NCBI GenBank assembly: GCA_947259685.1
Contig: CAMYNC010000063.1
Coordinates: 1 to 20,660, forward strand
DNA length: 20,660 nt
Source of the DNA: an uncultured Desulfuromonadales bacterium
Lineage (GTDB): Bacteria; Desulfobacterota; Desulfuromonadia; Desulfuromonadales; Geopsychrobacteraceae
Direction: 5' to 3'
Shown: in pieces, positions 942-12,892 of the stretch
Position numbering within the stretch: the first letter of the stretch is position 1
How the letters are laid out: each line of letters opens with the position of its first letter
Position numbers and translations under genes: made by a program
Notes under the pieces: model-generated
Told to the model about the DNA's origin: nothing
What the model saw: the letters and a program-made list of their open reading frames with translations, nothing else
Database searches by the model: none

Positions 942-1026
942 CTTATCTATCTCCTTTTGCAGTAAAAAAATATCCACAGAGTTTAGCAGGTTTTTTTGAC
1001 TAGAGATAGCGACTCAAGGGTCAAGA

Positions 1027-1042
1027 TGGGGTCAGGCTTTCA
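1027..1042 (+). repeat. Left 16-bp inverted repeat of the RAYT unit
   Basis: TGGGGTCAGGCTTTCA, perfectly complementary to 2026-2041 and about 40 bases before the transposase start codon. It is likely a recognition sequence for the Y1 transposase. Confidence 0.75.
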
Positions 1043-1080
1043 TAAATTGACAAAACGCGATCTCGAGTTATTCTCTTCCT

Positions 1081-2028
1081 ATGGCGAGAAAACAGAGAAT
1101 TCATTTTCCAGGGGCGGTTTATCATGTGATGCAGCGGGGAAACGGGGCTGGGACCATCTTCTTCTCTGACCAAGACCGGTGCCGATTTTTTCTGCTGCTC
1201 CAGGAAGCAACTGCTCGTTTTCATTGTCGGGTGCATGCCTTTTGTATGATGGAAAATCATTTTCACTTGGCCATCCAGGTAGGTACTGTCCCCTTGTCCA
1301 AGATTATGCAAAATGTTTCCTTCAGATACACCTCCTGGGTGAACAAGAATCAGGGCCGGATTGGGCACCTTTTTCAGGGACGCTACAAGGCCATACTGGT
1401 TGAAAAGAAAAGTTATCTTCTCGAACTTGTACGTTACATTCACTTAAATCCTGTTCGTGCCGGACTAGCTGCCAACCCCGAGGATTACTTATGGTGTGGA
1501 CACCGGACCTATGTGGGAGACGAAGCAATTCCCTGGTTGACGACCGATTGGATTCTTGGGCAACTCGGGGATGATTTGGATGTTGCCAGGGCGCGTTATG
1601 TTCGCTTTGTGCTGGATGGGGTAGGACAGGAGTTGGAAGAAGGTTTTCGATACGGAAGTTCGATCGATAGTCGTGCATATGGGACGGATAGCTTTGTTGA
1701 ACAGGCTTTAGAGCAGGGTACCGAATCTGAAAATAGACCACCAGAGTTTGTTGGTATTGTTGAAGCTGTATGCCGAAGTTATGATTCATCCGCAACTCGC
1801 CTTAAATTGAAGGGACAAGGGCGTATTGAGTCGCAGGCGCGTGCACTGATCGGTTTTGTCGCTACTTCCACCAAGAGTGCAACACTGACCGAGGTGGCCA
1901 AATATTTTGAAAGAGATGTCGCTACTTTAAGTACAGGGATCAAACGATTGAAAACCAGGATTTATGCCAGTGAGAACGAAACGGACATCTGGCGGAAGGT
2001 CCTCGAACAATTCAAATTGCAATTGTGA
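1081..2028 (+). CDS. REP-associated tyrosine transposase (RAYT), Y1/HUH family
   Basis: Single-strand DNA transposase of the IS200-like Y1 superfamily. The N-terminal half (about 1-135) holds the Y1_Tnp domain: FPGAVYHVMQRGN at the start, the HUH metal-binding motif as HFH (residues 60-62 in ENHFHL), and the nucleophile Tyr119 in RYIHLNPVRAGL. The C-terminal third (about 220-310) resembles the DnaA-type helix-turn-helix found in long RAYTs (LTEVAKYFERDVATLSTGIKRL). The 315-residue length is full for this long subclass, and all catalytic residues are present, so the enzyme may be active. No Shine-Dalgarno sequence is evident before the ATG. The stop codon lies inside the right inverted repeat. 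Its effect on the neighbours is unknown. Confidence 0.92.
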   Translation: MARKQRIHFPGAVYHVMQRGNGAGTIFFSDQDRCRFFLLLQEATARFHCRVHAFCMMENHFHLAIQVGTVPLSKIMQNVSFRYTSWVNKNQGRIGHLFQGRYKAILVEKKSYLLELVRYIHLNPVRAGLAANPEDYLWCGHRTYVGDEAIPWLTTDWILGQLGDDLDVARARYVRFVLDGVGQELEEGFRYGSSIDSRAYGTDSFVEQALEQGTESENRPPEFVGIVEAVCRSYDSSATRLKLKGQGRIESQARALIGFVATSTKSATLTEVAKYFERDVATLSTGIKRLKTRIYASENETDIWRKVLEQFKLQL

Positions 2029-2041
2029 AAGCCTGACCCCA
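2026..2041 (-). repeat. Right 16-bp inverted repeat of the RAYT unit
   Basis: TGAAAGCCTGACCCCA, the exact reverse complement of 1027-1042. Its first three bases are the transposase stop codon, so gene and repeat are physically fused. Confidence 0.75.
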
Positions 2042-2071
2042 GAACTGGAATACAGAATATTTAGGTGACAA

Positions 2072-3055
2072 TTGACATCTCCCAGAAAACAAATTCTTCA
2101 ATGGGCCAAACAGGGCCACCTGAATGAAGCTCTCCTCCCTGAAGCTCTTTGTCTCGCTGAAGCAGAACCTTCCCCATCAGACTGGCGACAGTTCATCGAT
2201 AAACTGATGCTCTGGTTCGGGTCGATCTTCATGGCGGTGGGGGTGATTTTCTTCTTTGCCTACAACTGGCAGGAGATGGGTCGCTACGCCAAGTTCGGGC
2301 TGGTTGAGTTCTGTATCGTGGCGGCGATTGCTATCTGCTGGAAGCTAGGGCTTGATCGGTTGTCGGGTAAGGCGGCGCTATTCGCTGCGACCATTTTGAT
2401 CGGTGCGCTGCTCGCCCTGGTCGGGCAGACCTATCAGACTGGGGCTGACCCCTGGCAACTGTTTGCTGTCTGGGCGGCAATGATCCTCCCCTGGGTTGTG
2501 ATCGGTCGGTTCGGTGCTCTGCTGCTGTTCTGGATCGGGTTGATCAACCTTTCCATGTTTCTTTACTTTCAAACCTTTCCCCGCTTCTTCGGCGTTTTTG
2601 GGGTGCTATTCGGCAGCGAAGCCATGCTCTGGACCTTTTTCATCTTCAATACGGCTATCCTCTGCCTCTGGGAACTTGCTGCCCAGCGGCAGGTCTCATG
2701 GTTGAGTGAACGTTGGCCGTTGCGGGTGCTGGCAGTTGCCAGTGGAAGTTTGATTACAACCCTGGTTGTGTGGTCGATCTTTGAATTCCGTTCTTTTGGC
2801 GTTGCCTGTCCGATTGGTTATCTGCTCTGGCTGGCTGCGGCATACTTCGTTTATCGACATAACTACACAGATGTCTTTGTCTTGGCTGGAGGGGTGTTAA
2901 GCGTCATCATTGTTGTGACAGTCCTGCTGGCGCATTCGATGTTCAATCACGGAGGAAATGCCGGTTCTTTCCTGATCATCGGTCTGGCTGTTATCGGTCT
3001 TTCGGCGGTTGGCGGGTTGTGGTTGAAATCGATTGCTCTGGAGGACAAGTCATGA
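2072..3055 (+). CDS. DUF2157 multi-pass membrane protein
   Basis: Integral inner-membrane protein of the DUF2157 family, function unknown. The cytoplasmic N-terminus (about 1-38) is a small helical region (QWAKQGHLNEALLPEAL) typical of the family. It is followed by about nine or ten hydrophobic segments, starting with IFMAVGVIFFFAYNWQEMG; the F-x-AYNW-x-x-M signature is characteristic. The start is a TTG with AGGTGA (2063-2068) close upstream, and no better ATG is available. The TGA stop overlaps the ATG of the next gene, so the genes are translationally coupled. DUF2157, DUF4401 and GDYXXLXY proteins are commonly found together, which supports one membrane complex, though its role is not established. 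Confidence 0.88.
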   Translation: MTSPRKQILQWAKQGHLNEALLPEALCLAEAEPSPSDWRQFIDKLMLWFGSIFMAVGVIFFFAYNWQEMGRYAKFGLVEFCIVAAIAICWKLGLDRLSGKAALFAATILIGALLALVGQTYQTGADPWQLFAVWAAMILPWVVIGRFGALLLFWIGLINLSMFLYFQTFPRFFGVFGVLFGSEAMLWTFFIFNTAILCLWELAAQRQVSWLSERWPLRVLAVASGSLITTLVVWSIFEFRSFGVACPIGYLLWLAAAYFVYRHNYTDVFVLAGGVLSVIIVVTVLLAHSMFNHGGNAGSFLIIGLAVIGLSAVGGLWLKSIALEDKS

Positions 3056-4131
3056 AGATTCTCTCCAGACAAAGCTTGTGGCAACGTTTGCAAAGTGGCG
3101 GACTGGTTGAGAGGGATCTCCCCCCGGCGGAAAAGGGTGATTCGCTCTGGTATGTGCGGGTCATGCTCGGTGTCGCTGGCTGGATCGGATCTCTGTTTCT
3201 ACTCGGTTTTGTCGGAGCCGGGTTCGCTTTTGTGATGGAGAACGCAATAGCCGCTCTGGTTGTCGGCGGCCTAGTCAGTGGCGGCGCCTACGCAATATTT
3301 AAAACCAGGCAGGATAGTGATTTTTTCACCCAGTTCGGTCTGGCGGTTGGCCTGGCCGGGCAGATGATGTTGATTTACGGCATCTTTGAACTGTTCGATC
3401 ATAATGAGTCTCTCGTTTATGGTCTGATCTTTGTTGCCGAAGCGCTACTGACCTTTCTCATGCCGAATTTCATTTATCGTGTGCTGTCCAGTCTGGCGGC
3501 GGCGCTTGCGCTGACCTTTGCCCTGCACAGTGCCGGCGTCTACGGTCTTGCCTCAGGGTTGCTTGCTGCAGGGTTCTCGTTGGTGTGGTTACAGGATGTT
3601 CGCTGGTTCAGGTTCAGTGAAACCTGTCGCCCGGTTGGCTATGGGCTGGCCTTTTCTCTGCTCTACTACAAAGCCGGTATATTTTGGGGACATTGGATCT
3701 GGTGGTCGCGACCGGCGGGACCGAACTGGATTTCCCAAAATGCTTTATGGCTGGGCAAAGCATTGATCCTGATCGTTTTTTTTGTCGTGTTTTTCGTCCT
3801 GCTCAAACGGATGCAGATTGTCGTTACCAGTCGATCCGGCTTAGCTGCTCTGGCTGCGACCGGTATAGGGATATCAGCAGCTTTTGCTACTCCTGGGTTA
3901 GGGCAGGCCTTGTTGATTCTTATCATCGGCTTTACCGTTTGCAATCGCGTCCTGATCGGCATCGGCTTGCTGGCGAGCGGCGCGTTCCTCTCCAATTATT
4001 ACTATCTGCTGCAATCGACCCTGTTGGAAAAATCACTGCTGCTGATCGGCATCGGTGCTGTTCTGCTCATCAGTCGGGTCCTGGTACGGACATGGCTTCC
4101 GCTATCTGAGAGAGGGCAAGCCGATGCGTAG
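3052..4131 (+). CDS. DUF4401 multi-pass membrane protein
   Basis: Second gene of the DUF2157-DUF4401-GDYXXLXY operon; 359 residues with about ten membrane helices and function unknown. The N-terminal stretch (about 1-40) is polar, with LWQRLQSGGLVERDLPP, then WYVRVMLGVAGWIGSLFLLGF opens the membrane part, as in DUF4401 proteins. The start at 3052 is chosen because its ATG overlaps the upstream stop as ATGA; an in-frame start at 3019 would lie far inside the previous gene. The 3' end overlaps the next gene by 8 bases. Strong overlap on both sides implies one transcript and balanced synthesis. Confidence 0.87.
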   Translation: MKILSRQSLWQRLQSGGLVERDLPPAEKGDSLWYVRVMLGVAGWIGSLFLLGFVGAGFAFVMENAIAALVVGGLVSGGAYAIFKTRQDSDFFTQFGLAVGLAGQMMLIYGIFELFDHNESLVYGLIFVAEALLTFLMPNFIYRVLSSLAAALALTFALHSAGVYGLASGLLAAGFSLVWLQDVRWFRFSETCRPVGYGLAFSLLYYKAGIFWGHWIWWSRPAGPNWISQNALWLGKALILIVFFVVFFVLLKRMQIVVTSRSGLAALAATGIGISAAFATPGLGQALLILIIGFTVCNRVLIGIGLLASGAFLSNYYYLLQSTLLEKSLLLIGIGAVLLISRVLVRTWLPLSERGQADA

Positions 4132-4618
4132 AACTATCCTGATTGCCACGACCCTGCTTCTGCTGGTGGGGGTCAATTTCACCATTTACCAGCGTGAAAA
4201 TCTGATCAGCTATGGTCGTGTGATCCTGCTGGAACTGGCCCCGGTCGATCCTCGTTCGCTCATGCAGGGCGACTACATGGCGCTACGCTTTCAGATTGCC
4301 AATCAGGCCTTTGCCGGGCTGGATCTGAAAACGCTTGATGACGGTCATCTGGTGACAGTTCTCGATGAAAGGGGAGTCGCCTCTTTCTCCCGCTTTGCTG
4401 ATTCGTCGCCACTGGCGAAGAATGAAGTCCTGTTACGCTATCGCATCCGCAATGGACGCTCAAAGTTTTCGACCAATGCGTTCTTTTTTCAGGAAGGTCA
4501 TGCTAAGGATTACGAGGCTGCCAGATTCGGAGAATTTCGCGTAGATACGGATGGTGAGGCGATTCTGGTCCGGTTGCGAGACAAGGATCTGGTTATGCTT
4601 GGGGCGGAGAAGTTGTAA
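4124..4618 (+). CDS. GDYXXLXY family protein
   Basis: Third gene of the membrane operon; 164 residues. A single N-terminal hydrophobic helix (about 4-20) anchors or exports the protein, followed by an extracytoplasmic domain. The family signature appears as GDYMALRF (residues 49-56), preceded by the usual APVDPRSLMQ. A C-terminal beta region (FFFQEGHAKDYEAARFGEF, then GEAILVRLRDKDL) also matches the family. The ATG at 4124 overlaps the DUF4401 stop by 8 bases, which fixes the start. These proteins accompany DUF2157/DUF4401 membrane proteins; molecular function is not known. No clear rho-independent terminator follows. Confidence 0.87.
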   Translation: MRRTILIATTLLLLVGVNFTIYQRENLISYGRVILLELAPVDPRSLMQGDYMALRFQIANQAFAGLDLKTLDDGHLVTVLDERGVASFSRFADSSPLAKNEVLLRYRIRNGRSKFSTNAFFFQEGHAKDYEAARFGEFRVDTDGEAILVRLRDKDLVMLGAEKL

Positions 4619-4720
4619 ATAAGAAGAGTGTGATTTGTGGAAGAATACAGAGAATTTGAGACATATGAGGAGTGCCCCTAAATAATCCCAAAGTGCCATA
4701 AGAAAGTAATAGACGCTAAG

Positions 4721-4832
4721 GCCTAACTAATCAACCGGACGGAAAATATGTCTGTGCTAAATTGAAAAACAAAACCAATTGCGGTGGGCCACGCAAGTTC
4801 ACGTCGCCGCCGGTTTTCGTTACCCGTTATGC
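4721..4832 (+). other. Putative integron attC site (best preserved)
   Basis: The segment has the four-box layout of an attC site. R'' is GCCTAAC (4721-4727, fits RYYYAAC), L'' is AACCGGACGG (4733-4742), L' is CCGCCGGTT (4807-4815) and R' is GTTATGC (4826-4832). L'' and L' pair fully except for one extra A in L'', the extrahelical base that integron integrases use to choose the strand. R'' and R' pair at six of seven positions. The 112-bp length is within the known range. A close copy of the central part occurs at 11166-11252. No integrase gene is in the window, so the call rests on structure only. Confidence 0.55.
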
Positions 4833-4875
4833 GTAAAAATTAAATAGATCGAATACCAACCAAGGAGGACGATAA

Positions 4876-5268
4876 ATGAAATTTCGTATTCTATTTGTGT
4901 TGGCCGTTCTATCATTTTCTGTGGTCAACGCCAAAGCAGGTGAAAAAACTAAACTGATCGGCGAGCAACTTTCAAAAAGAATTCAAGGGTACGAAGTCTT
5001 GGCTGGCATATCCAAAGAACCTGGCATTGGTTTCAATTTCATGGTTGTCGCATACCAAAACGGCACTCGCGAGCTTTACTGGAACGATGGTGTCAAATCA
5101 GGAATAGACACAGGAAACCACCGATTTATAGGCGACCAAACATGCGTAATCTGGAAGACGTCCTTTGAAGGTAAAGAACGGTGCTATGACGTTTACCAAA
5201 CCGATAATAATCAATACGAAAGTTGGCATAATGGGGAAATTGCCTTTTCGTATTACAAAATAAGGTAG
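4876..5268 (+). CDS. Small secreted protein of unknown function
   Basis: A 130-residue protein with a clean signal peptide (MKFRILFVLAVLSFSVVNAKA, split near residue 21), so it is exported. The mature part is beta-rich with two cysteines (in QTCVIW and ERCYDVY) spaced like a disulfide pair. The pattern Cys-x-x-W ... Cys-Tyr-x-Val-Tyr recalls small DUF995-type periplasmic proteins, but I would not assign it firmly. A strong AAGGAGG lies at the right distance before the ATG. The gene stands alone between two attC-like boxes, consistent with an integron gene cassette (inference). Confidence 0.75.
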   Translation: MKFRILFVLAVLSFSVVNAKAGEKTKLIGEQLSKRIQGYEVLAGISKEPGIGFNFMVVAYQNGTRELYWNDGVKSGIDTGNHRFIGDQTCVIWKTSFEGKERCYDVYQTDNNQYESWHNGEIAFSYYKIR

Positions 5269-5279
5269 GTGGGCAAAAA

Positions 5280-5308
5280 ACGCATAACAACTCAATGAAC
5301 CGTTATAT
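5280..5308 (+). other. attC remnant at the end of the secreted-protein cassette
   Basis: ACGCATAAC (5280-5288) is the exact 9-base reverse complement of GTTATGCGT at 4826-4834, the point where the preceding attC ends. In integrons a cassette's R'' box is complementary to that cassette's own first bases, so this is what a real cassette would show. The remaining boxes are lost: only AACTCAATGAACCG and a GTTATAT (5302-5308) follow, far too short for a working attC. It is probably a deleted site. Confidence 0.4.
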
Positions 5309-5431
5309 TTAAATAATTGATTATTAACCGAAACGAGAGAAAGGAGGCCGGAAGTTAAAGGGTCTTATGCCAACTTCGAGCCCAAAAGCCGTTCATCTGG
5401 TTTAAGCTCAGCATTCGATTACCAACGGTTC

Positions 5432-6487
5432 GTGGCCCGGCGAGAGCGTCTGACTATCTCGACATGGGTGTTCTGCGTTGCCTGGTGGGCTACCCTCATG
5501 GTGGTTGGCATTGGCTCGCAGTGGTGGGCGCCTTTGGCCCGCTTGAAGGGCGCCACCATCTGGGGCGACCTGACCGTCGACCGCCTTCTCGCGCTGGGGG
5601 CGTTGGTCTCGGTCGTCGTCTGCATTGGCGGACCGTGGCTCATTCGGAACCTACGCCGTCCTCCGCAGCTCTTCATTCTACTCCGCGACTTCCAGAGCAG
5701 CGCCGCGGCCCAGCTCGCAAGCAGGTACGTGCGCCAGCATGGCGCGGCGTGGGGGTACTGGCTGACACTTGAGAACGCGGACCTTCAGGCGACCGACAGC
5801 GTCAGCGGGGAGGCCGAGATCGATCCCGACGACGAGAAGGACCGGAACAAAAAGCCTCCCGTCGGCGCCTGGTGGATTACCAGCTTGGTGCTTGGTCTCG
5901 TCTCGACGACGGTGCTTCTCCTAAGTTACCTCGATTCGGCACCACTGCAGTGGATGCGACGGACGTCGGAGCACTTCGGATTGATCGGCGATCTCGGGTT
6001 CGGAGTCGTCAGCATCGCCGGAATCTGCACTGTCTGGCTTGCCACCGCGCTGAGCATTCGTTGGGTGCTACTCAAGGTGCAACGATCAGCGGTTCTCCCG
6101 GAGCGGATCAACTCCGCGGAGACCTGCCAAAGAGTGCTCGATATGATCGTCTCCCGGGTCCGCCGCCGCGCGACAACGCTCACACTCGGCCCCCTGCCGG
6201 TAATCTCAGTCGGTGATGCCTGGTGGGAGGATGCCGTCCTGCGCTGCATCGCCGAAGCCCGCCTAGTCGTATTCATAATCACCGCGCGCGAGTCGACGGC
6301 CCTGAATTGGGAGATGGACCAGGTCCGCCAACTATTCGACCCGCGCCGCACCCTCTACATTGAGCTGAGCGGGGACGACCTCTGCCTCACTGACGGAACC
6401 GGTGACCCGATACCCGGCACGTCGCTGGGGCCAGAGGAGGACCGGATCGAAGCCGCCGTCCGCAGGATGCTGGTCGGCGACGGATGA
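5432..6487 (+). CDS. Membrane protein with C-terminal TIR-like/Rossmann-type domain
   Basis: A 351-residue protein, unusually GC-rich relative to its surroundings. There are two hydrophobic helices at about 11-33 and 52-72, a soluble part with ILLRDFQSS (about 82-90), two more helices at about 146-167 and 186-215, then a cytosolic tail. The tail reads GPLPVISVGDAWWEDAV, then ARLVVFIITARES-TALNWEMDQV. This resembles a family of bacterial membrane proteins with LRxF and an A-x-LIV ... GLxWE pattern, related in layout to TIR-type domains with a conserved Glu (here E294). Function is unknown; signalling or defence is speculation. The GTG start is weak: the frame is open back to 5321, and an AAAGGAGG at 5340-5347 has no start codon at a suitable distance, so the 5' end may be altered. 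Confidence 0.65.
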   Translation: MARRERLTISTWVFCVAWWATLMVVGIGSQWWAPLARLKGATIWGDLTVDRLLALGALVSVVVCIGGPWLIRNLRRPPQLFILLRDFQSSAAAQLASRYVRQHGAAWGYWLTLENADLQATDSVSGEAEIDPDDEKDRNKKPPVGAWWITSLVLGLVSTTVLLLSYLDSAPLQWMRRTSEHFGLIGDLGFGVVSIAGICTVWLATALSIRWVLLKVQRSAVLPERINSAETCQRVLDMIVSRVRRRATTLTLGPLPVISVGDAWWEDAVLRCIAEARLVVFIITARESTALNWEMDQVRQLFDPRRTLYIELSGDDLCLTDGTGDPIPGTSLGPEEDRIEAAVRRMLVGDG

Positions 6488-6629
6488 GCTGCGACCTGGA
6501 GCGCTGGTTCGATTTTGGGCCCTCGGCGTGGTCGGAACTGAAATACCAAGATGGAAGACACTGAGTAACCTGGGACACTCCCCCTATTTCCTAATTGCCT
6601 GCAGCCCAGCCCTCCCCTCTTCCAATCAT

Positions 6630-6683
6630 ATGCCATGAATCGCCCGCATCGGCACTCCCGGTTATTCCCATCACATCACACAG
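6630..6683 (+). pseudogene. Remnant of a second RAYT transposase (N-terminus only)
   Basis: ATG CCA TGA followed by codons for IARIGTPGYSHHITQ reproduces the N-terminus of a common RAYT type (MPRIARI-x-x-PGYPHHxTQRGN). The third codon is TGA where CGA (Arg) is expected, and the similarity ends after ITQ. This type differs from the intact RAYT at 1081-2028, so a different element once stood here. GGGACACTCCCC upstream (about 6571-6582) resembles the palindromic flanks of such units. Confidence 0.5.
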
Positions 6684-7089
6684 CTTCTCAACAACGGCGC
6701 CACGATCAGATGCCCTCTTGCGTTAGCAGATAGGTCTCAGCCCACATTGGCTGGACGAATTTAAATCGAAAATAGACAAATCATGTCAAAGAACTATTAT
6801 TTTTAGTAACTTGCATCGTTGCTATACTTTTCAACCGGACAGTATTGTGCATACATATAAATTATTATCTGGCAAAGCTCTAGTATTTAAATTCTTTGCT
6901 ATAATATTGATATCGAACAAAGTTATTTGTTTAGACATTAACAGGAATAAAATAGAAATTACATGGACAACAAAAAACAATATCTTATGAAAACTTGAGA
7001 CTTATTGTTGGTATATATTTTTTATTCATTTCAATCTAAATGCCAGGGATTAGCCACCCTTTAAAAACCCCAAAAAGTGGGAGAAGGCC
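6684..7089. other. Long AT-rich spacer without a supported gene
   Basis: From about 6760 the sequence turns strongly AT-rich, in sharp contrast to the GC-rich gene before it. No reading frame with coding character was found on either strand. TCAACCGGACAG at 6831-6842 matches the first part of the L'' side of the two attC-like repeats (4731 and 11166), but no L' partner follows. A GAGAAGG just before 7090 serves as ribosome binding site for the next gene. The spacer appears to be a patchwork of remnants. Confidence 0.5.
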
Positions 7090-7311
7090 ATGACAAACGA
7101 CCTCAACACAAATATTCCAGAGGAATGTTGTTCATGCGGAGTAAAAAAGGCATTAACAGATCTCCACAAATCGCCCTGTTGCCAATATTCTGTCTGCAGT
7201 GCCTGTGCTACGTACCATAAGATGCCGTGGACATTGGGATATCTTTGTGAAAATTGCCAGTCTAAAGTAAGCCTTGGCAACAGCAAACAAGGCCACGCGC
7301 TACTTCATTAG
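7090..7311 (+). CDS. Small cysteine-rich putative zinc-binding protein
   Basis: A 73-residue protein with nine cysteines in pairs: ECCSCG (about 13-17), SPCCQYSVCSAC (about 28-39) and CENC (about 53-56), plus histidines at 26 and 43. The spacing of CxC and CxxC pairs suggests a compact zinc-binding fold that could hold two metals. I do not recognise the family. A GAGAAGG ends a few bases before the ATG. It stands alone in the accessory region. It is short, so non-coding status is not excluded, but regular Cys pairing argues for a real gene. Confidence 0.55.
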   Translation: MTNDLNTNIPEECCSCGVKKALTDLHKSPCCQYSVCSACATYHKMPWTLGYLCENCQSKVSLGNSKQGHALLH

Positions 7312-7650
7312 CTGGCGCCTATAACGAATATCTCTGGACCCTTGCCCGTTACATTGAAAAAATCCACTGAAGGCCGGGCTTGGCCTCATTAGTTGCCTGG
7401 TTTATTGCTAATTATTTAGAGAATGATAAATTTTACAGCACGATCATTAAACCGGGAATAGACAAATTGTATAACTATTGACTTAAGAGCACCATACGGG
7501 GACAGGGGAAAATGGCAGGCTGAATCAACAAGCGGCGTACCGCTACGGCCAGGACCACGATAACCTCACCATCGACAATCAAGATCGATTAAATAGAGAC
7601 ACTCCCGAATGGCGCTAGACATTATGACCCGTTATGTTTCATAAGGAGGA
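7312..7650. other. Spacer with possible attC pieces and no supported gene
   Basis: CTATAAC at 7319-7325 could be a degraded R'' box. At the right end, ACCCGTTATG (7627-7636) equals the 3' end of the attC at 4721-4832 and is followed within 10 bases by a strong ribosome binding site, as at the start of a cassette; GTTATGT at 7631-7637 would be the R' box. Between them an open frame ending GQDHDNLTIDNQDRLN (stop about 7618) looks coding-like but has no start and no family I know. GAGACACTCCC (about 7594) echoes RAYT-type flanks. Confidence 0.35.
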
Positions 7651-8361
7651 ATGACCTTGCCGGAGCGCAAAAATATCGCATTGCTGATCGACGCAGATAA
7701 TTCGCCCGCGAAGTCAATCCAAAGAATCCTGTCGGAACTCGCACGTCACGGCAAGGTGAACATTCGGCGGGCTTATGGAAATTGGACGTCCCAAAACTTG
7801 AAGGGCTGGGAAGCTTCACTGCAAGAGCATGCCATTCAGCCAATTCAGCAATACGATCTTACGAAAGGAAAGAACGCCACTGATATTGCGATGACCATTG
7901 ATGCAATGGACATGCTGTACACAAAGCAGATAGATACATTTTGCCTAGTTACATCGGATTGTGATTTTACGCCGCTGGCGACCCGACTATTGTCAGAAGG
8001 AAAATCTGTTATTGGCTTCGGAGAAAGAAAAGTTCCCGCCGTGTTTGTGAATGCGTGTTCGACATTCTTGTTCCTCGATGACGAGGAAGAAAAACCCGTA
8101 AGGAAGTTGACGGCAAACGAGCTCCGGGGCGATACCAGGTTGACGAATCTGATAAGAGAAGCCATATCGGGTACGGAGGACGATGAGGGATGGGCAAGGC
8201 TTTCCAAAGTTGGCGCGCATATTTCAAATCACGCCTCTTTTGACGCAAGGAATTTCGGTTACTCACGCCTTAGTGATCTTATCGAAGCGATTGGCTTATT
8301 TGAGCTAAGGCGCGATGGCAACATGCATTTCGAGGTTCGCAATGGGAAGCGAAAAACCTAA
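7651..8361 (+). CDS. NYN domain ribonuclease-like protein with C-terminal LOTUS (OST-HTH) domain
   Basis: A 236-residue protein. Residues about 8-145 form a NYN (PIN-like, DUF88/LabA) domain with the acidic metal-binding set: D14 and D16 in LLIDADN, D78 in KNATDIAM, and D103/D105 in TSDCDF. These are expected to cut RNA with a divalent metal. Residues about 160-230 match an OST-HTH/LOTUS module (TNLIREAI ... WARLSKVGAHI ... FGYSRLSDLIEAIGLF), an RNA-binding winged helix. The target is unknown. AAGGAGG (7643-7649) is only one base before the ATG but seven before the in-frame TTG at 7657, so translation may really begin at 7657. The gene is flanked by attC-like boxes on both sides, and its stop codon lies inside one, as in integron cassettes. 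Confidence 0.9.
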   Translation: MTLPERKNIALLIDADNSPAKSIQRILSELARHGKVNIRRAYGNWTSQNLKGWEASLQEHAIQPIQQYDLTKGKNATDIAMTIDAMDMLYTKQIDTFCLVTSDCDFTPLATRLLSEGKSVIGFGERKVPAVFVNACSTFLFLDDEEEKPVRKLTANELRGDTRLTNLIREAISGTEDDEGWARLSKVGAHISNHASFDARNFGYSRLSDLIEAIGLFELRRDGNMHFEVRNGKRKT

Positions 8362-8424
8362 AAATACGTTCAAGCCATTCGCTACGCTCACTCGGTCGAC
8401 CTGTTGCGCCGGCCGCCGCTTAAC
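8356..8424 (+). other. Degenerate attC-like site after the NYN gene
   Basis: ACCTAAA (8356-8362) differs by one base from an R'' box (ACCTAAC) and contains the stop codon of the NYN gene. After AATAC comes GTTCAAGC (8368-8375), a very common attC L'' sequence. GCTTAAC (8418-8424) is the matching L', leaving one C of L'' unpaired. No R' follows at the usual distance, but GGCGTTAAGA at 8592-8601 could be a displaced one. The rest of the spacer to 8647 has no supported gene and ends with the ribosome binding site of the next one. Confidence 0.45.
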
Positions 8425-8647
8425 TATGAGACTGTCGGACTATCCATGAGCCGGCTGCAAATTCGACTGTTTGGCCCAGATTTCAGCTCTTTTTCGGCCC
8501 ATAGCTACAACTATGAGCTCTCAAACGAGCCAAAATCTGGTCTCAAACATCCAAATTTTCGCTTCGGCCCGAATAGCCCGACAGCCCCCTAGGCGTTAAG
8601 ATTTTATTAGTACATTTGAATTTATTGTTTAGAAAGGTGATACGCAT

Positions 8648-8965
8648 ATGGCTCAATACATTATTACTTACCTAGGCGGCGATCAGCCATCTAGCCCAGA
8701 GGAAGGTAAGCAACATTTCGCGAAATATAAAGAATGGTTATCTTCATTGGGCGCCTCAGTCGTTAGTCCTGCTAATCCGTTTAAAAATACCCATAACATA
8801 AATCCTGACGGCACTGTCACCACTGGAAGCACAACGACAATGTCCGGATACACTATAATTGAAGCTGATTCTATGGAGACGGCACTGGAGATTGCAAAAG
8901 CCTGCCCGTTTCTTGATATTGGCGGTTCACTTGAGGTGTCAGAGTTAGTACAGATGCCAGGCTAA
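8648..8965 (+). CDS. YCII-related (YciI/DGPF-type) protein
   Basis: A 105-residue single-domain protein of the YCII superfamily, a ferredoxin-like fold related to muconolactone isomerases. It begins MAQYIITYLGG, has a central QHFAKYKEWLSSLGASVVSP helix region, and the typical GYTIIEADSMETALEIAKACPFL block (about 67-89) followed by a C-terminal strand. The biochemical role of most members is unknown. An AAGGTGAT box lies about 8 bases before the ATG. It is a lone gene between attC-like remnants, so it may be another former cassette. Confidence 0.85.
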   Translation: MAQYIITYLGGDQPSSPEEGKQHFAKYKEWLSSLGASVVSPANPFKNTHNINPDGTVTTGSTTTMSGYTIIEADSMETALEIAKACPFLDIGGSLEVSELVQMPG

Positions 8966-8971
8966 AAACTC

Positions 8972-8994
8972 ATATAACAATCGCATCACTTGCT
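8972..8994 (+). other. Possible attC left-half remnant after the YCII gene
   Basis: ATATAAC (8972-8978) resembles an R'' box and is the reverse complement of GTTATAT at 5302-5308. AA and then TCGCATCAC follow, as an L'' arm would, but I find no L' or R' partner before the next gene. Weak evidence on its own. Confidence 0.22.
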
Positions 8995-9100
8995 CCGCGG
9001 AGAAAGCCCAGGTCACTAAACCTGTTGGTGGTGAATGGTGCTTACTGCTGTTTTGTTGATTCTTCTTACATACGGGATTAAAAGATGAAAGCAGTGTGAC

Positions 9101-10312
9101 ATGTCGTGGCATGCAAGTCTTCTCAAGGCGATCAGCTCGCCTTATACGCGCCTGGCATACGCCCTTTTGGTTTTTTCTCTCTCGTTATTAGCAATCTTTG
9201 CGGCCCCGACCTACTCTCTTTGGAAGCTGGCAATTCTCGCAACGGAATATGGCCACTTTTTATCAATACTATCCCTCATTGTTCTTCTCCCTGGTTGGCG
9301 ACATTCATGGCTTGGCCGGTTCAGTGTCGGGCTAGGACTCATGGCATCCCTGCTTTTCATGACGCCTGTTTTTCGCGCGCTGGCGGTGGGAAACCGGTTG
9401 CCAGAGCAATTGGAAATCGCCTTCGGCAACAAAAGTGACAACGGCAGCCGTGTTGAGATCGGCAGACAAGACCCATTAGACCTTGCCGACCTCTTTTTCG
9501 GCATCGAGTATCACAGGATTGAGAGCAGTACCCATGTCTATCGCCGCACAGAAGGAAAAGAGCTGACTCTTGATCTCTACCGAGCCGCGAGCGACAATCC
9601 GGCCCGACCGGGAGTTATAGTCATTCACGGTGGCGGCTGGCGCAGCGGCGACAGCAAAGAGTTGCCCGCTCTCAATAGTTACCTGGCCAGCAGAGGCTAT
9701 CTCGTGGCGGCGGTCAACTACCGCTTGGCGCCAGAGTTTTGTTACCCTGCTGCTGTCTCGGATATTCAATCAGCCATCGCCTATCTCAGGGACCACGCCG
9801 TCGAATTTGGCCTGGACCCGAACCGCCTGATCTTGCTGGGACGTTCGGCTGGGGCACACCTGGCTCTGCAGACGACCTATACTTCAGCTGAGCCGGCTAT
9901 CCAGGGCGTGGTGTCCCTCTATGGAACCGCTGATTTATACTATGGCTACACCCATCCGGCCAAACCGCTGGTTTACGATACCAATAGCGTGCTGGAGGAA
10001 TTCTTGGGTGCGAATCCGACGGAACGACCAGAGCTCTATCGTGCCGCGTCACCTATTCATTTCGTTGCTGCGAACACACCGCCGACTTTATTGGTTCATG
10101 GTGGGCGAGACGAACTGATTTCGCCGGAACAAAGCCGTAGATTGGCCGACAAGCTACGCGCAAGTAATGTCCCCCACCTCTACTTGCAGCTGCCCTGGGC
10201 AACCCACGCTTGCGATTTCAATATCAGTGGTCCATGCGGACAATTGATCCTCTATGCGCTTGAGCGTTTTCTTGATCGGCTTTTGGATCGGAAGCGTTCA
10301 ACGACACAATAG
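9101..10312 (+). CDS. Membrane-anchored alpha/beta hydrolase (HSL/BD-FAE-type esterase)
   Basis: A 403-residue protein. The first 95 residues hold about three hydrophobic segments (about 17-35, 52-64 and 75-92), so the enzyme is membrane-bound. The catalytic part starts near 140. HGGGW (176-180) forms the oxyanion hole, GRSAG (247-251) carries the nucleophile Ser249, Asp337 lies in HGGRDELI and His369 in WATHAC, giving a complete triad. This arrangement is typical of carboxylesterases/lipases of the HSL and BD-FAE type; the substrate cannot be told from sequence. No good ribosome binding site precedes the ATG. The methyltransferase gene follows 93 bases later on the same strand, so the two may be co-transcribed. 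Confidence 0.88.
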   Translation: MSWHASLLKAISSPYTRLAYALLVFSLSLLAIFAAPTYSLWKLAILATEYGHFLSILSLIVLLPGWRHSWLGRFSVGLGLMASLLFMTPVFRALAVGNRLPEQLEIAFGNKSDNGSRVEIGRQDPLDLADLFFGIEYHRIESSTHVYRRTEGKELTLDLYRAASDNPARPGVIVIHGGGWRSGDSKELPALNSYLASRGYLVAAVNYRLAPEFCYPAAVSDIQSAIAYLRDHAVEFGLDPNRLILLGRSAGAHLALQTTYTSAEPAIQGVVSLYGTADLYYGYTHPAKPLVYDTNSVLEEFLGANPTERPELYRAASPIHFVAANTPPTLLVHGGRDELISPEQSRRLADKLRASNVPHLYLQLPWATHACDFNISGPCGQLILYALERFLDRLLDRKRSTTQ

Positions 10313-10405
10313 AATTTGAACTGAATCAATCTTTTGGACCAGGTAAACCGTGAGACCTAAAAAGAAAACCAGGGCGTGTTCTATTCCCCTCAGGAAGAAT
10401 AAGGA

Positions 10406-11152
10406 ATGAAAAATCAATCAGATACTACCGTCCTCGTTGACCGCTATCGGAACGCTGCGACGGAAAAGGTTGAGGCGAACTCGTACAAAGGACTGCGTAT
10501 CCACGCGCTGCCTGGCTTGCACGATTTCATCGCAACCAAGGCTTTGGAGCACTTCGAGCCTGGAGTCAGGTTGTTGGACTTGGCCGCTGGCACCGGTGCG
10601 ATGAGCTTGCGCATGCAAGATCTCGGATTCAAGGTGTCGGCAACAGACTATGTGCCCGAAAATTTCCAGCTGGATTCGATTTCATTCATCCAAGCAGACC
10701 TGAATGAGCCCTTCTCAGCTGTGTTTCCTCAGCCCTTTAAAGCAGTCATCGCTTCGGAGATCATCGAGCACGTGGAAAACCCGCGGCACTTCGCACGCGA
10801 GTGCTTCAAACTTCTAGAGCCAGGAGGCCGTATGGTACTGTCCACCCCAAATGTGGAGAATGCGGCGTCTAAGGCGTCATTCCTCCGTTCGGGCTCCTTT
10901 CTCTGGTTTTCTGAAGAAGACTACGAGGGGCACGGTCACATCACACCGCTAACGCAGTGGCAGATTCGCAGAGCATTCGAAGAAGCAGGGTTTCGATTCC
11001 GCTGGGAAGGATCCTTTGGAGAAGGAGCAAGTCTGTTGGCCGGCTCGCCGAGACTGGCGCTGCTGGCAAGACTCGTTGCATTGATATCGACACGTGATTC
11101 GGAGCTTGCCCGAGAAATTTTCGTAGCGGTCGTGGAGAAGCCTGAGGCATGA
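10406..11152 (+). CDS. Class I SAM-dependent methyltransferase
   Basis: A 248-residue Rossmann-fold methyltransferase of the Methyltransf_11/23 kind. SAM-binding motif I is LLDLAAGTGAMS (about 56-67), the acidic residue at the end of strand 2 is D81 in SATDYVPE, motif II-like QADLNEPF is at about 96-103, then EIIEHVENP (118-126) and LEPGGRMVLSTPN (137-149). These features resemble UbiG-like and other small-molecule or lipid methyltransferases; the substrate is unknown. The start is supported by AGGAAG about 9 bases upstream. It follows the esterase gene with a short gap, suggesting a shared transcript. The attC-like repeat begins five bases after its stop, and that repeat could end a two-gene cassette. 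Confidence 0.88.
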   Translation: MKNQSDTTVLVDRYRNAATEKVEANSYKGLRIHALPGLHDFIATKALEHFEPGVRLLDLAAGTGAMSLRMQDLGFKVSATDYVPENFQLDSISFIQADLNEPFSAVFPQPFKAVIASEIIEHVENPRHFARECFKLLEPGGRMVLSTPNVENAASKASFLRSGSFLWFSEEDYEGHGHITPLTQWQIRRAFEEAGFRFRWEGSFGEGASLLAGSPRLALLARLVALISTRDSELAREIFVAVVEKPEA

Positions 11153-11156
11153 TCAA

Positions 11157-11252
11157 CCTATCAACTCAACCGGACGGAAAATACGTCTGTGCTAAATTGA
11201 AAAGCAAACTCTAAATTGCGATAGGTCACGCAAGTTCGCGTCGCCGCCGGTT
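11157..11252 (+). repeat. Second copy of the attC-like repeat
   Basis: Positions 11166-11252 match 4731-4815 with roughly 88% identity by eye. L'' (AACCGGACGG, 11168-11177) and L' (CCGCCGGTT, 11244-11252), including the unpaired A, are unchanged. Inside, TTGCG/CGCAA arms are also kept, and GACG pairs with CGTC here but with TGTC (a G-U pair) in the other copy, so structure seems maintained. The left box CTATCAAC is only near an R'' and no standard R' follows; instead the ecotin leader begins. Confidence 0.6.
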
Positions 11253-11282
11253 ATCATGAACCATTCGGCAAGAGGAGGAAAT

Positions 11283-11759
11283 ATGAAGAAAGTATGTTCC
11301 ATCACTGTGCTCGCGTTTCTCTGCGCAATATTGTCTGTCCAAGCGGCGGACAATATGCAGGCGTTTCCACCGGCCGAGGAGGGTATGGTGCGACATGTCC
11401 TGCAACTTCCGAAACAGGATGATGAATCCGCTTTCAAGGTGGAACTGATCGCCGGTAAGACCGTCGAGGTTGGCAAAGAGAACAAGTATTTTTTCGGTGG
11501 CACGATCGAGAAGGAAACGATCAATGGCTGGGAATACCCACGCTACAATATCAGCAAATTGGGACCGATGGCGGGCACACTGATGGCAATCGATCCCAAT
11601 GCGCCGAAAGTAAACCGCTTTATCGCGCTGGGCGGAGACCCCTATCTGATCCGCTACAATAGCCGGTTGCCCATAGTGGTGTATGCACCCGAAGGTGTTG
11701 AAATACGTTATCGGATTTGGAGCGCCGGGCCGGAGACAAAAGCGATTGAAAAGGGCTGA
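11283..11759 (+). CDS. eco: Ecotin-type periplasmic serine protease inhibitor
   Basis: A 158-residue secreted inhibitor that dimerises and blocks trypsin-fold serine proteases in ecotins. It has a signal peptide (about 1-21, ending SVQAA) and the family core: PPAEEGMVRHVLQLP, DESAFKVELIAGKTVEV, GGTIEKETINGWEYPRY, and the strongly conserved RYNSRLPIVVYAPEGVEIRYR-type C-terminus. The reactive-site loop reads GPMAGTLMAI, with Met101 in the P1 position, as in E. coli. Both cysteines of the E. coli loop disulfide are replaced (Lys and Ile). The start at 11283 is chosen over 11256 because GAGGAGG precedes it by 5 bases and the signal peptide begins there. It stands directly after the attC-like repeat. 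Confidence 0.9.
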   Translation: MKKVCSITVLAFLCAILSVQAADNMQAFPPAEEGMVRHVLQLPKQDDESAFKVELIAGKTVEVGKENKYFFGGTIEKETINGWEYPRYNISKLGPMAGTLMAIDPNAPKVNRFIALGGDPYLIRYNSRLPIVVYAPEGVEIRYRIWSAGPETKAIEKG

Positions 11760-11854
11760 GGGGACATCGCCCAGAACCATGACTGCCGAACCAGCGGATA
11801 GGGTGGCGTGTACAGCCGGCAGCGTCGTTGACCCAATCATTCATAGGAGTGCTT

Positions 11855-12220
11855 ATGTTTAAAGTGATACCAAATGGCATAAATCGCTTGGATATTGAGT
11901 TGAGCGGAAAGTTGAATACTGAAGAAATGAAAATTGCCTTAGACGAACTGGTCAGCAAGTCGAAGGATATTGAAAACGGCAAAATGCTGTATGAAATTAG
12001 CGACTTTCATATTCCTTCACTTGGGGCGATTGCCGTTGAATTTTCCCGGCTTCCTGCGATGTTTGGGCTTATGAAAAAATTTGACCGGGCGGCTGTATTG
12101 ACTGATAAGACTTGGTTACAGAAAGTAAGTGAATTTGAGGGAGCGTTGTTCCCTGGCCTGGAAATTAAAGCATTTAACAGAGATCAAAAAGCGGAGGCCG
12201 AAGCCTGGCTATCGAGCTAG
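11855..12220 (+). CDS. SpoIIAA-like (STAS-related, DUF3478) protein
   Basis: A 121-residue cytosolic protein of the SpoIIAA-like family, a STAS-type alpha/beta fold. Typical segments are IELSGKLNTEEMKIALDEL, GKMLYEISDF, and a C-terminal block FDRAAVLTDKTWLQKV-SEFEGALFPG, then KAFNRDQKAEAEAWL. These proteins have been linked to lipid binding or membrane association, but no role is firm. The start at 11855 is preferred to 11828 because TAGGAGT precedes it and the family begins with a short M-x-x-x-I strand. It is convergent with the chemotaxis block, whose last gene ends 67 bases downstream; that gap shows only short inverted repeats. Confidence 0.85.
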   Translation: MFKVIPNGINRLDIELSGKLNTEEMKIALDELVSKSKDIENGKMLYEISDFHIPSLGAIAVEFSRLPAMFGLMKKFDRAAVLTDKTWLQKVSEFEGALFPGLEIKAFNRDQKAEAEAWLSS

Positions 12221-12286
12221 TTTCCAAATCAGAAAGGTTGCCATTGCCATCCCGAAACTCAGGATCGACACGGCGGGATAGAGCTG

Positions 12287-12892
12287 CTAACCAGGCTCGG
12301 CGGTTAGTTTGGAAAGCAGCATCTGCAGAGATTTTTCCTGGGGGAACAGGTAGATCGCCCCCTGCAAAGGCTCCCCCTGCTGCTCGGCACAGCAGAGGCG
12401 GGTGCGGACGATCATGCAGGGTTCGCTGTCAGCAGGGTGCAGCCGCAGTAATAATTCTGCGATCCTGGCCCGGGAGATCTGTGGCGGCGAGGGCAGGCAG
12501 CACAAGCCGTACTGGTTATCAAAACTGGTCAGAAACGCCGAAGCGAGGATGTTGCCGACCTCCTTCAAGGCGGAACTGGCCGGTTCGCTGAGCAGATTTT
12601 CCAGCGAGCTGCGCCGCAGCAGTTGGCAGCCTAGCCAGCTGGCGCTGGCCTCGGGGAAAAACAGCAGCAGGCCACCTTCGAGGTCACCGCTGAGCGCCAG
12701 AGAAATACCAATGCCCGGCTCTCCTCCTCGCTCCTCTAGCAGCAGCCGATCAGACATCCAGGCAGCGGCGACTTCAACCCGGACCGGCTGGGCGAGAAGT
12801 TTTGACAGCATTTCCGCTGCCTGCTCTAGTCCCTGCTGACAGATTCTGCGCAGTTCAGCGCCGCGTCGTCGATCGATTTTATCCAGCCGCAT
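12287..12892 (-). CDS. cheC: Chemotaxis protein CheC (CheY-P phosphatase)
   Basis: A 201-residue CheC/CheX/FliY-type phosphatase expected to remove phosphate from CheY. The active-site signature (acidic/Ser-x3-Glu-x2-Asn) is seen once, as SALKEVGNILASAF with Glu111 and Asn114. The corresponding N-terminal helix, which in two-site CheC proteins reads like EIGNIGAG, is here RRICQQGLEQAA (about 15-26) and has lost both catalytic residues. It is therefore a one-site enzyme. It is the last gene of the che operon, starting 3 bases after the cheA stop, with AAAGGC as ribosome binding site inside the cheA end. It may also bind CheD in other species; no cheD is visible here. Confidence 0.85.
   Translation of the reverse strand: MRLDKIDRRRGAELRRICQQGLEQAAEMLSKLLAQPVRVEVAAAWMSDRLLLEERGGEPGIGISLALSGDLEGGLLLFFPEASASWLGCQLLRRSSLENLLSEPASSALKEVGNILASAFLTSFDNQYGLCCLPSPPQISRARIAELLLRLHPADSEPCMIVRTRLCCAEQQGEPLQGAIYLFPQEKSLQMLLSKLTAEPG

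What the first reader, a model, noticed from the sequence alone, without database searches (positions are those of the whole stretch)
4721..9000. Decayed integron cassette array without an integrase (CALIN-like)
Seen: lone, same-strand small genes with clashing base composition; attC-like boxes at 4721-4832, 5280-5308, 7627-7637, 8356-8424 and 8972-8978; unpaired bases in L'' at two of them; stop codon inside an R''-like box after the NYN gene. Known: attC sites show R''/L''/L'/R' with an extrahelical base, and clusters can persist without integrase. Inference: the region is an eroded cassette array, possibly reaching the repeat at 11157. Most sites are damaged, so some may be chance.
Basis: partly seen in the sequence, partly recalled or inferred. 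Interest (0 to 1): 0.7.

Follow-up and report, generated by a model that had tools for sequence, protein, structure and literature searches.

The report
Decayed integron gene-cassette array
A stretch of an uncultured bacterium's DNA is a worn-out row of captured genes of the integron kind, and it shows how the gene-swapping sites can die: one lost exactly its hairpin, one was probably split by a small jumping element, one was worn by point changes.

Summary
Confirmed, with corrections. A covariance model built without the window finds two strong attC sites, 4721-4832 and 11152-11269 (E 2.6e-23 and 9.2e-25), of a family that sits beside integron integrases in Desulfuromonadales. The array reaches at least 11269. 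The gene 4876-5268 is a cassette: in relative G071 its copy lies in an array of 27 attC matches and keeps a full attC. In the window that attC is 27 nt long (5282-5308): the hairpin is gone, R'' and R' remain. The same form with the same junction follows the same gene in G015 and three other, unrelated cassettes (G015, G081, G088). The NYN-gene site (8356-8601) is probably an attC split by a 161-bp MITE. Sites 7627-7637 and 8972-8978 are not above chance. No integrase was found in the window; the genome is not held. The array sits in an 11.3-kb island missing between the same flanking genes in two relatives. Best reading: a relic cassette array (CALIN-like) frozen by several kinds of damage. 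The array is ordinary; the repeated same-junction hairpin loss is the new part, though two of its five examples were found by asking for that junction.

The parts
978..12286 (.). island between LolA (159-977) and a chemotaxis gene (12287-12892); contains a RAYT-like gene, DUF2157, DUF4401, GDYXXLXY, the cassette array, ecotin and an 11828-12220 gene
   Evidence: LolA and che12287-CheA-CheY-CheW-MCP-CheR-ThiL are direct neighbours in G014 (L099) and G088 (L100)
4721..4832 (+). full attC: R'' 4721-4727, L'' 4733-4742 with extra base A4739, L' 4807-4815, R' 4826-4832
   Evidence: R1 97.1 bits E 2.6e-23, R2 E 9.7e-23; the only site above the maxima of all 20 shuffles in a generic scan
4876..5268 (+). 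hypA: 130-aa cassette gene of unknown function (cassette from 4827)
   Evidence: 88% aa identity to a cassette gene in the G071 array, 86% in G015; dN/dS 0.18
5282..5308 (+). mini-attC: R'' 5282-5288 and R' 5302-5308 with 13 nt between, hairpin lost
5432..6487 (+). hypB, GC-rich cassette-position gene; homolog P0026 aligns by eye from about 5354, where the codon is not a standard start
7090..7311 (+). small cysteine-rich ORF (73 aa), status uncertain
   Evidence: ORF only; no family
7558..7637 (+). possible attC remnant before the NYN gene; not significant
   Evidence: R2 E 6.2
7651..8361 (+). NYN + OST-HTH/LOTUS domain gene
   Evidence: Pfam PF01936 1.3e-40, PF12872 9.9e-17; most relatives in the order are beside attC
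8356..8601 (+). probable attC of the NYN cassette, split: R'' 8356-8362 (changed), L'' 8368-8375 with extra C8371, L' 8418-8424, R' 8595-8601; 81 bp without the insert and one duplication
   Evidence: chance-level by shape alone
8428..8588 (+). 161-bp palindromic MITE, target duplications 8424-8427 (CTAT) and 8589-8592 (CTAG)
   Evidence: family in 85 of 136 genomes of the order; CTAG on both sides in 11 of 16 aligned copies; fold z -5.7
8648..8965 (+). YCII-related gene, cassette position
   Evidence: PF03795 3.8e-6; 0 of 136 genomes of the order
8972..8978 (+). R''-like box, not above chance
9101..10312 (+). alpha/beta hydrolase gene
   Evidence: PF20434 3.2e-47
10406..11152 (+). class I methyltransferase gene, ends at the next attC
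   Evidence: PF13489 6.7e-19; 0 of 136 at E 1e-25
11152..11269 (+). second attC of the same family; L'' and L' intact, both R boxes changed
   Evidence: R1 102.6 bits E 9.2e-25
11283..11759 (+). ecotin gene, starting 14 nt after the last R'; possible last cassette
   Evidence: PF03974 1.9e-43; no attC match after it

Best explanation
The region 4721-11269 is a relic integron cassette array (CALIN-like) in the DNA of an uncultured Desulfuromonadales bacterium. Cassettes were laid down by an integron integrase of the kind that many relatives still encode. The array then froze as its attC sites died in different ways: loss of exactly the hairpin, leaving a 27-nt R''-13 nt-R' scar that fuses hypA to the next cassette; probable insertion of a MITE between L' and R' of the NYN cassette's site; and changes in both R boxes of the last site. 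Shown: two attC of one family, hypA as a cassette with a full attC elsewhere, the same scar in other arrays, the MITE and its duplications. Inferred: that the scar and the split site cannot be recombined, that the hairpin was lost by slippage across the extruded hairpin (AAT before L'' and CAT before R', sharing only AT), and that no integrase acts here.
For: attC hits with models free of window sequence. The family occurs beside integrases: integrase profile over its cut-off in 54 of 136 genomes of the order and in 0 of 14 controls; 97 matches at E up to 1 in 65 loci, some of them the integrase loci. G071: 27 distinct attC matches (E up to 1.7e-5) from C1:7847 to 27100 beside intI at 28073-28909. 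hypA window 4827-5301 versus G071: 425 of 474 aligned nt identical; then full attC in G071 and scar in the window. Scar after hypA also in G015, followed by another cassette. Other scars: G015 second site, G081, G088, after genes without similarity to each other. NYN: 6 of 9 homolog loci have an attC within about 60 nt of the gene. MITE anatomy. hypA dN/dS 0.18 against G071 and G015. LolA next to che12287 in G014 and G088.
Against: Only two full attC, 6.3 kb apart. Their single-strand folding energies are not unusual (z 0.31 and -1.17). The covariance models alone do not make 5282-5308 significant (E 0.99, 0.19). The NYN site is at chance level by shape. The integrase beside the G071 array is itself interrupted by a copy of the MITE, so that array too may be idle. 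YCII and methyltransferase genes were found in 0 of 136 genomes of the order, so their cassette status rests on position. About 6740-7600 has no recognisable site. The whole genome is not held, so an integrase elsewhere is possible; 4721-4832 looks intact and could still recombine if one exists.
Confidence: 0.87

Rival explanations
1. The cassettes are still mobile: an integrase elsewhere in the genome acts in trans on 4721-4832 and perhaps 11152-11269, so this is a side array rather than a relic.
For: 4721-4832 keeps all four boxes and the extra base. The nearest relative by ThiL, G087 (71%), has an integrase match over the cut-off. CALINs can be mobilised in trans (passage of PMC12444791).
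Against: 5282-5308 has lost its hairpin, 8356-8601 is probably split, and the last site has both R boxes changed; no integrase match in the window.
Confidence: 0.25
2. The array is not the rest of a lost integron: cassettes were inserted one by one, or as a block, into a non-integron (attG-type) place inside an island.
For: The array lies in an 11.3-kb island that also holds genes not known as cassettes (RAYT-like, DUF2157-DUF4401-GDYXXLXY) and is missing in G014 and G088; no integrase trace in the window; attG insertion is described (recalled; named in a passage of PMC12444791).
Against: No target-site evidence was found at 4618-4721; loss of an integrase end is equally possible.
Confidence: 0.3
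3. The 27-nt sites are not scars but a working minimal recombination site.
For: The same junction AAT/GAACC in five sites of four distinct cassettes (hypA in the window and in G015, and one each in G015, G081, G088); the sequence after the hypA scar differs between window and G015 from within R' on.
Against: R''-L'' is reported as essential for attC (passage of PMC2727003); a truncated attC was inactive in one integron (abstract and passages of PMC4670013), although another truncated site was reported there as active. G071 shows the full site for the same cassette. Two of the five were found with a pattern that demanded this junction.
Confidence: 0.08
4. The attC-like boxes are chance repeats in ordinary DNA.
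Against: E 2.6e-23 and 9.2e-25 for two sites and 31.1 bits against a shuffle maximum of 15.0 for a third.
Confidence: 0.01

Closest known systems
CALIN (cluster of attC sites lacking an integron integrase)
   Same: several attC sites, same-strand small genes, no integrase found in 20.66 kb; [quoted passage not shown]
   Different: only two full sites remain, 6.3 kb apart; others are a hairpin-less scar and a probable MITE-split site; IntegronFinder itself was not run
Fused gene cassettes by partial loss of attC (for example blaGES-1/aacA4)
   Same: hypA and the following cassette are joined by an attC that lost its stem-loop; slippage on attC stem-loops is already proposed as a cause (section 2.4.4 of PMC8876359, read)
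   Different: the clinical case had its attC replaced by part of attI1, leaving 6 bp (passage of PMC4670013); here R'' and R' both stay, 13 nt apart, with one repeated junction in several unrelated cassettes
Sedentary chromosomal integrons with taxon-specific attC (Deltaproteobacteria model of Ghaly et al. 2021, author and year recalled)
   Same: one attC family shared by many genomes of the order; a Deltaproteobacteria-specific model exists (passage of PMC8352920)
   Different: that model was not available here, so identity with it is untested
Prokaryotic MITEs
   Same: short, palindromic, no gene, many copies, target duplication
   Different: no autonomous parent was seen; TSD CTAG; a 68-bp form also occurs in G055

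Membership tests
[quoted passage not shown]
   4721-4832 and 11152-11269
CALIN | neighbouring attC sites within about 4 kb (recalled default; not found in the passages) | tested here: inconclusive
   6.3 kb between the two full sites; 3.5 and 2.6 kb if 8356-8601 counts
CALIN | no integron integrase nearby | tested here: met
   the five integrase ORFs that match the G071 integrase gave no match to the window at E up to 1; the only rows, E 0.12 and 0.74, came from other ORFs of those loci. Only the 20.66-kb window could be tested
CALIN | hit by IntegronFinder's own attC model | not testable with these tools
   model not on hand; own models R1 and R2 used
Fused cassette | two cassette genes joined by a partly lost attC, full attC known for the first cassette | tested here: met
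   hypA full attC in G071, 27 nt in the window
Fused cassette | truncated site no longer recombines; genes move as one cassette | not tested
   needs an assay
MITE | inverted-repeat ends, no transposase gene, many copies | tested here: met
   85 of 136 genomes at E up to 0.001; 70+75 ends in G055 with up to 1 mismatch; fold z -5.7
MITE | target-site duplication | tested here: met
   CTAG on both sides in 11 of 16 aligned copies; left CTAG in 15, right in 12 (counted by eye); window CTAT/CTAG
MITE | autonomous parent with the same ends | tested here: inconclusive
   no inward-facing pair of ends 1-2 kb apart seen among the listed places of four genomes; the G055 list was cut

The most novel reading that the evidence does not exclude
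attC sites in Desulfuromonadales die by one stereotyped event: exact loss of the hairpin between AAT before L'' and CAT before R', leaving a 27-nt mini-attC. This would be a recurring route that turns mobile cassettes into fixed operons, and the mini-site may still serve as an insertion target.
Probability: 0.3. Interest if true: 0.6.

Novelty: new variant of a known kind. Interest (0 to 1): 0.42.

Why it matters
How cassettes become fixed, and how integrons shrink to CALINs, is as far as I know mostly inferred from clinical arrays (recalled). Here the before state (full attC, G071) and the after state (27-nt scar, window and G015) can be compared for one cassette. A repeated deletion at one junction would make the cost of keeping hairpins in DNA measurable: the scar can be counted across genomes and the event rate tested in the laboratory. 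The covariance models used here hardly saw the scar (E 0.99 and 0.19), so attC finders of that type would be expected to miss such sites and undercount cassettes.

Tried and rejected
Own-genome searches failed because no genome is held. Rfam on the window gave one weak CRISPR match below its cut-off and nothing at the gathering scores for five loci with odd R'' boxes. A generic attC shape scan of 4501-12400 is too weak: only 4721 exceeded the maxima of 20 shuffles; the narrower shape scan put the NYN site at chance. Bottom-strand folding energies do not separate attC from shuffles. hypA in a sample of 395 genomes of the phylum: 0, although the order search of 136 found 2, so that sample says little. 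hypA in viral contigs: 7 stretches matched a peptide pattern, none encodes a relative. The DNA search of plasmids found 18 records, those with annotation being NYN genes where a feature was named; the protein search there was with NYN only. A possible remnant of the G015 upstream cassette at 4637-4653 (15 of 17 nt) has p 0.047 by shuffling and was chosen after the fact: not used. No tRNA. IS110-type insertions explain odd R'' boxes (TAGTATC) in some relatives, not shown for the window.

Ascertainment: the mini-attC pattern was written from three known sites, so G081 and G088 were found by asking for the same junction (6 places with up to 1 mismatch; 4 in or beside attC arrays; G061 lies in an acetate kinase gene; G080 has no attC match; reversed control 1). 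Support for G081 being an array is one R2 match at E 0.0014 and an attC-like stretch seen by eye. The right-half scan that did not ask for the left junction gave 28 rows over 135 records: 21 with L', 2 full sites with a variant L', 5 rows (4 distinct sites) of the mini form; one of these, L122, came from the pattern search. That scan needs ATGAACCGTT and misses sites with other spacers.
Full report
What was checked. The window has 20,660 bases; no genome is held for it. Its ThiL is 71% identical to G087 and 64% to G014, the best of 136 genomes of the order of G013, and its LolA / chemotaxis / ThiL gene order is that of G014 and G088. So it comes from an uncultured relative of this order, whose records in hand are titled Desulfuromonas, Desulfuromusa, Malonomonas and Desulfuromonadales.

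The attC sites. A two-box pattern written from the repeat at 4731 and 11166 occurs twice in the window and in none of 100 shuffles. In the genome collection it matched 30 stretches, 26 of them from Desulfuromonadales and other former Deltaproteobacteria by title, and 5 viral stretches, 37 sites in all. With flanks, most read R''-spacer-TCAACCGGACGG...CGCCGCCGGTT-spacer-R', the anatomy of attC (by eye); a few do not (for example L002, L014). I aligned 29 of the 37, without the window, and built model R1. R1 finds 11152-11269 at E 9.2e-25 and 4721-4832 at E 2.6e-23; then follow a minus-strand match at 14465-14492 (E 0.35) and 5282-5308 (E 0.99). A broader model R2 from 97 matches at E up to 1 in 65 loci, some of them duplicates, gives 1e-22, 9.7e-23 and 0.19 for the three sites. 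The 11152 site keeps L'' and L' but both R boxes are changed; the 4721 site keeps all four.

The family belongs to integrons. The integron-integrase profile passes its cut-off in 54 of 136 genomes of the order and in 0 of 14 control genomes. In G071, a 4.24-Mb contig, 29 R2 rows over two overlapping stretches, 27 distinct, run from 7847 to 27100 beside intI at 28073-28909. That integrase gene is interrupted by a copy of the MITE described below, so the G071 array may no longer be active either.

hypA is a cassette. The gene 4876-5268 has homologs in 2 of 136 genomes of the order, G071 (88%) and G015 (86%). Window 4827-5301 and G071 agree in 425 of 474 aligned bases, while the preceding attC agrees in 80 of 106 and the sequence after the site differs. 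The R'' of this cassette (GCATAAC) is the exact complement of the R' at its own start (GTTATGC), as a circular cassette requires. In G071 the gene is followed by a full 118-bp attC; in the window and in G015 the hairpin is missing and R'' and R' stand 13 nt apart. Window and G015 share 86% over the 500 nt before this site and show no similarity in the 500 nt after it. dN/dS is 0.18 for window against G071 and G015 (about 20 changes of each kind), which suggests that the gene has been kept by selection.

The mini-attC. With weight matrices from the two ends of the 29 full sites of relatives, 5282 scores 31.1 bits; the next place in the window scores 10.2 and 60 shuffles reach at most 15.0. Among the other loci four sites score 27.4 to 32.3 (two in G015, one each in G081 and G088); the next scores, from 21.7 down, are mostly full sites. 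All five have the form R''-AANNNAATGAACC-R'. The 500 nt before the four different cassettes show no similarity to each other. Of 117 pooled distinct full-site rows (overlapping sites with different ends counted apart) 44 read AATCAACC on the left, 23 CATGAACC on the right, and 18 both, so the mini form equals a jump from AAT on the left to GAACC on the right; the letters shared at the jump are only AT. A pattern for this form met 6 places in 136 genomes: two in G015, one each in G081 and G088, one in an acetate kinase gene, one in DNA without attC matches; the reversed control met 1. Because that pattern asks for the junction, the less biased evidence is the right-half scan: besides 21 sites with L' and 2 with a variant L', only the mini form was seen, in 4 distinct sites, one of which had been fetched by the pattern. 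That the jump is slippage over the extruded hairpin is inference; slippage on attC stem-loops is an existing proposal for fused cassettes (section 2.4.4 of PMC8876359, read).

The NYN cassette and the MITE. The NYN gene ends inside a box ACCTAAA (8356-8362); five bases on stands GTTcAAGC, and GCTTAAC at 8418-8424. The expected R' follows only after a 161-bp palindrome (8428-8588) flanked by CTAT and CTAG. Sixteen copies chosen from relatives show ends like GAGGCTGTCGGACTAT, with CTAG on both sides in 11 of 16 (by eye); the element matches in 85 of 136 genomes of the order. With the element and one duplication out, the site reads on to GTTAAGA, 81 bp in all. attC of this L''/L' type occur in L118 and L003. 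By shape alone such a site turns up about twice per shuffled strand, so I rate it probable (about 0.75), not proven. NYN homologs at E up to 1e-30 occur in 9 of 136 genomes; in 6 of the 9 loci an attC lies within about 60 nt of the aligned gene, on both sides in 3.

What fails. 7627-7637 and 8972-8978 are at chance. Folding energies of the attC bottom strands are not unusual. The YCII and methyltransferase genes were not found in the order (0 of 136 each; the latter at E up to 1e-25), which suits cassettes from elsewhere but proves nothing. No integrase match in the window; none can be excluded in the rest of the genome.

Setting. LolA and the chemotaxis gene are 147 nt apart by the aligned ends in G088 and 75 nt in G014; in the window 11.3 kb separate them. 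The island also holds a REP-transposase-like gene (65.6 bits, below the NCBIfam cut-off of 80), a DUF2157-DUF4401-GDYXXLXY set and ecotin. Whether the array is what is left of an integron or was inserted without one is open.

Papers. Seen as passages: PMC9024848, PMC12444791, PMC2727003, PMC5371416, PMC4670013, PMC8352920; one section of PMC8876359 read. I found no description of a recurring 27-nt hairpin-less attC in the search listings, which cover open-licence papers only. Details of attG insertion and the 4-kb default are recalled.

Noticed in passing
window 8428-8588; L102-L117; A 161-bp palindromic MITE with CTAG duplications matches in 85 of 136 genomes of the order, with 145 ends (up to 1 mismatch) in one 4.1-Mb genome (G055) and a second, 68-bp size class there; no autonomous parent was seen.
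   Followed up: partly
L094 13890-14049 (G071:C1:28890-29049): A copy of the same MITE interrupts the integron integrase gene of G071: the first integrase match ends at 13909-13912 and a second piece ends at 14172-14184 in L094.
   Followed up: partly
L008, L013, L016, L021 at the attC R'' box: Four loci have about 45 similar bases ending GGCCTGCAC directly before TAGTATC in place of R'' (by eye); in L016 an IS110-family transposase lies there (PF02371, PF01548), as expected of IS1111-attC elements (their papers seen only in a reference list). L010 has TAGTATC with other sequence before it.
   Followed up: partly
window 1081-2028: REP-associated tyrosine transposase-like gene with a weak DnaA-C-terminal-like tail (below cut-offs), at the left edge of the island.
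   Followed up: no
L127-L129, L132-L134: NYN plus LOTUS-type genes are a repeated cassette cargo in this order (6 of 9 homolog loci next to attC).
   Followed up: partly
window 6740-7600: About 0.9 kb of mostly AT-rich DNA (down to 34% GC) between hypB and NYN with one small ORF (7090-7311) and no clear attC; origin unexplained.
   Followed up: no
L003, L004, L005 (viral contigs): Three viral-collection contigs carry 6, 4 and 2 matches to the attC model; they may be phage-borne or host-derived cassette arrays.
   Followed up: no
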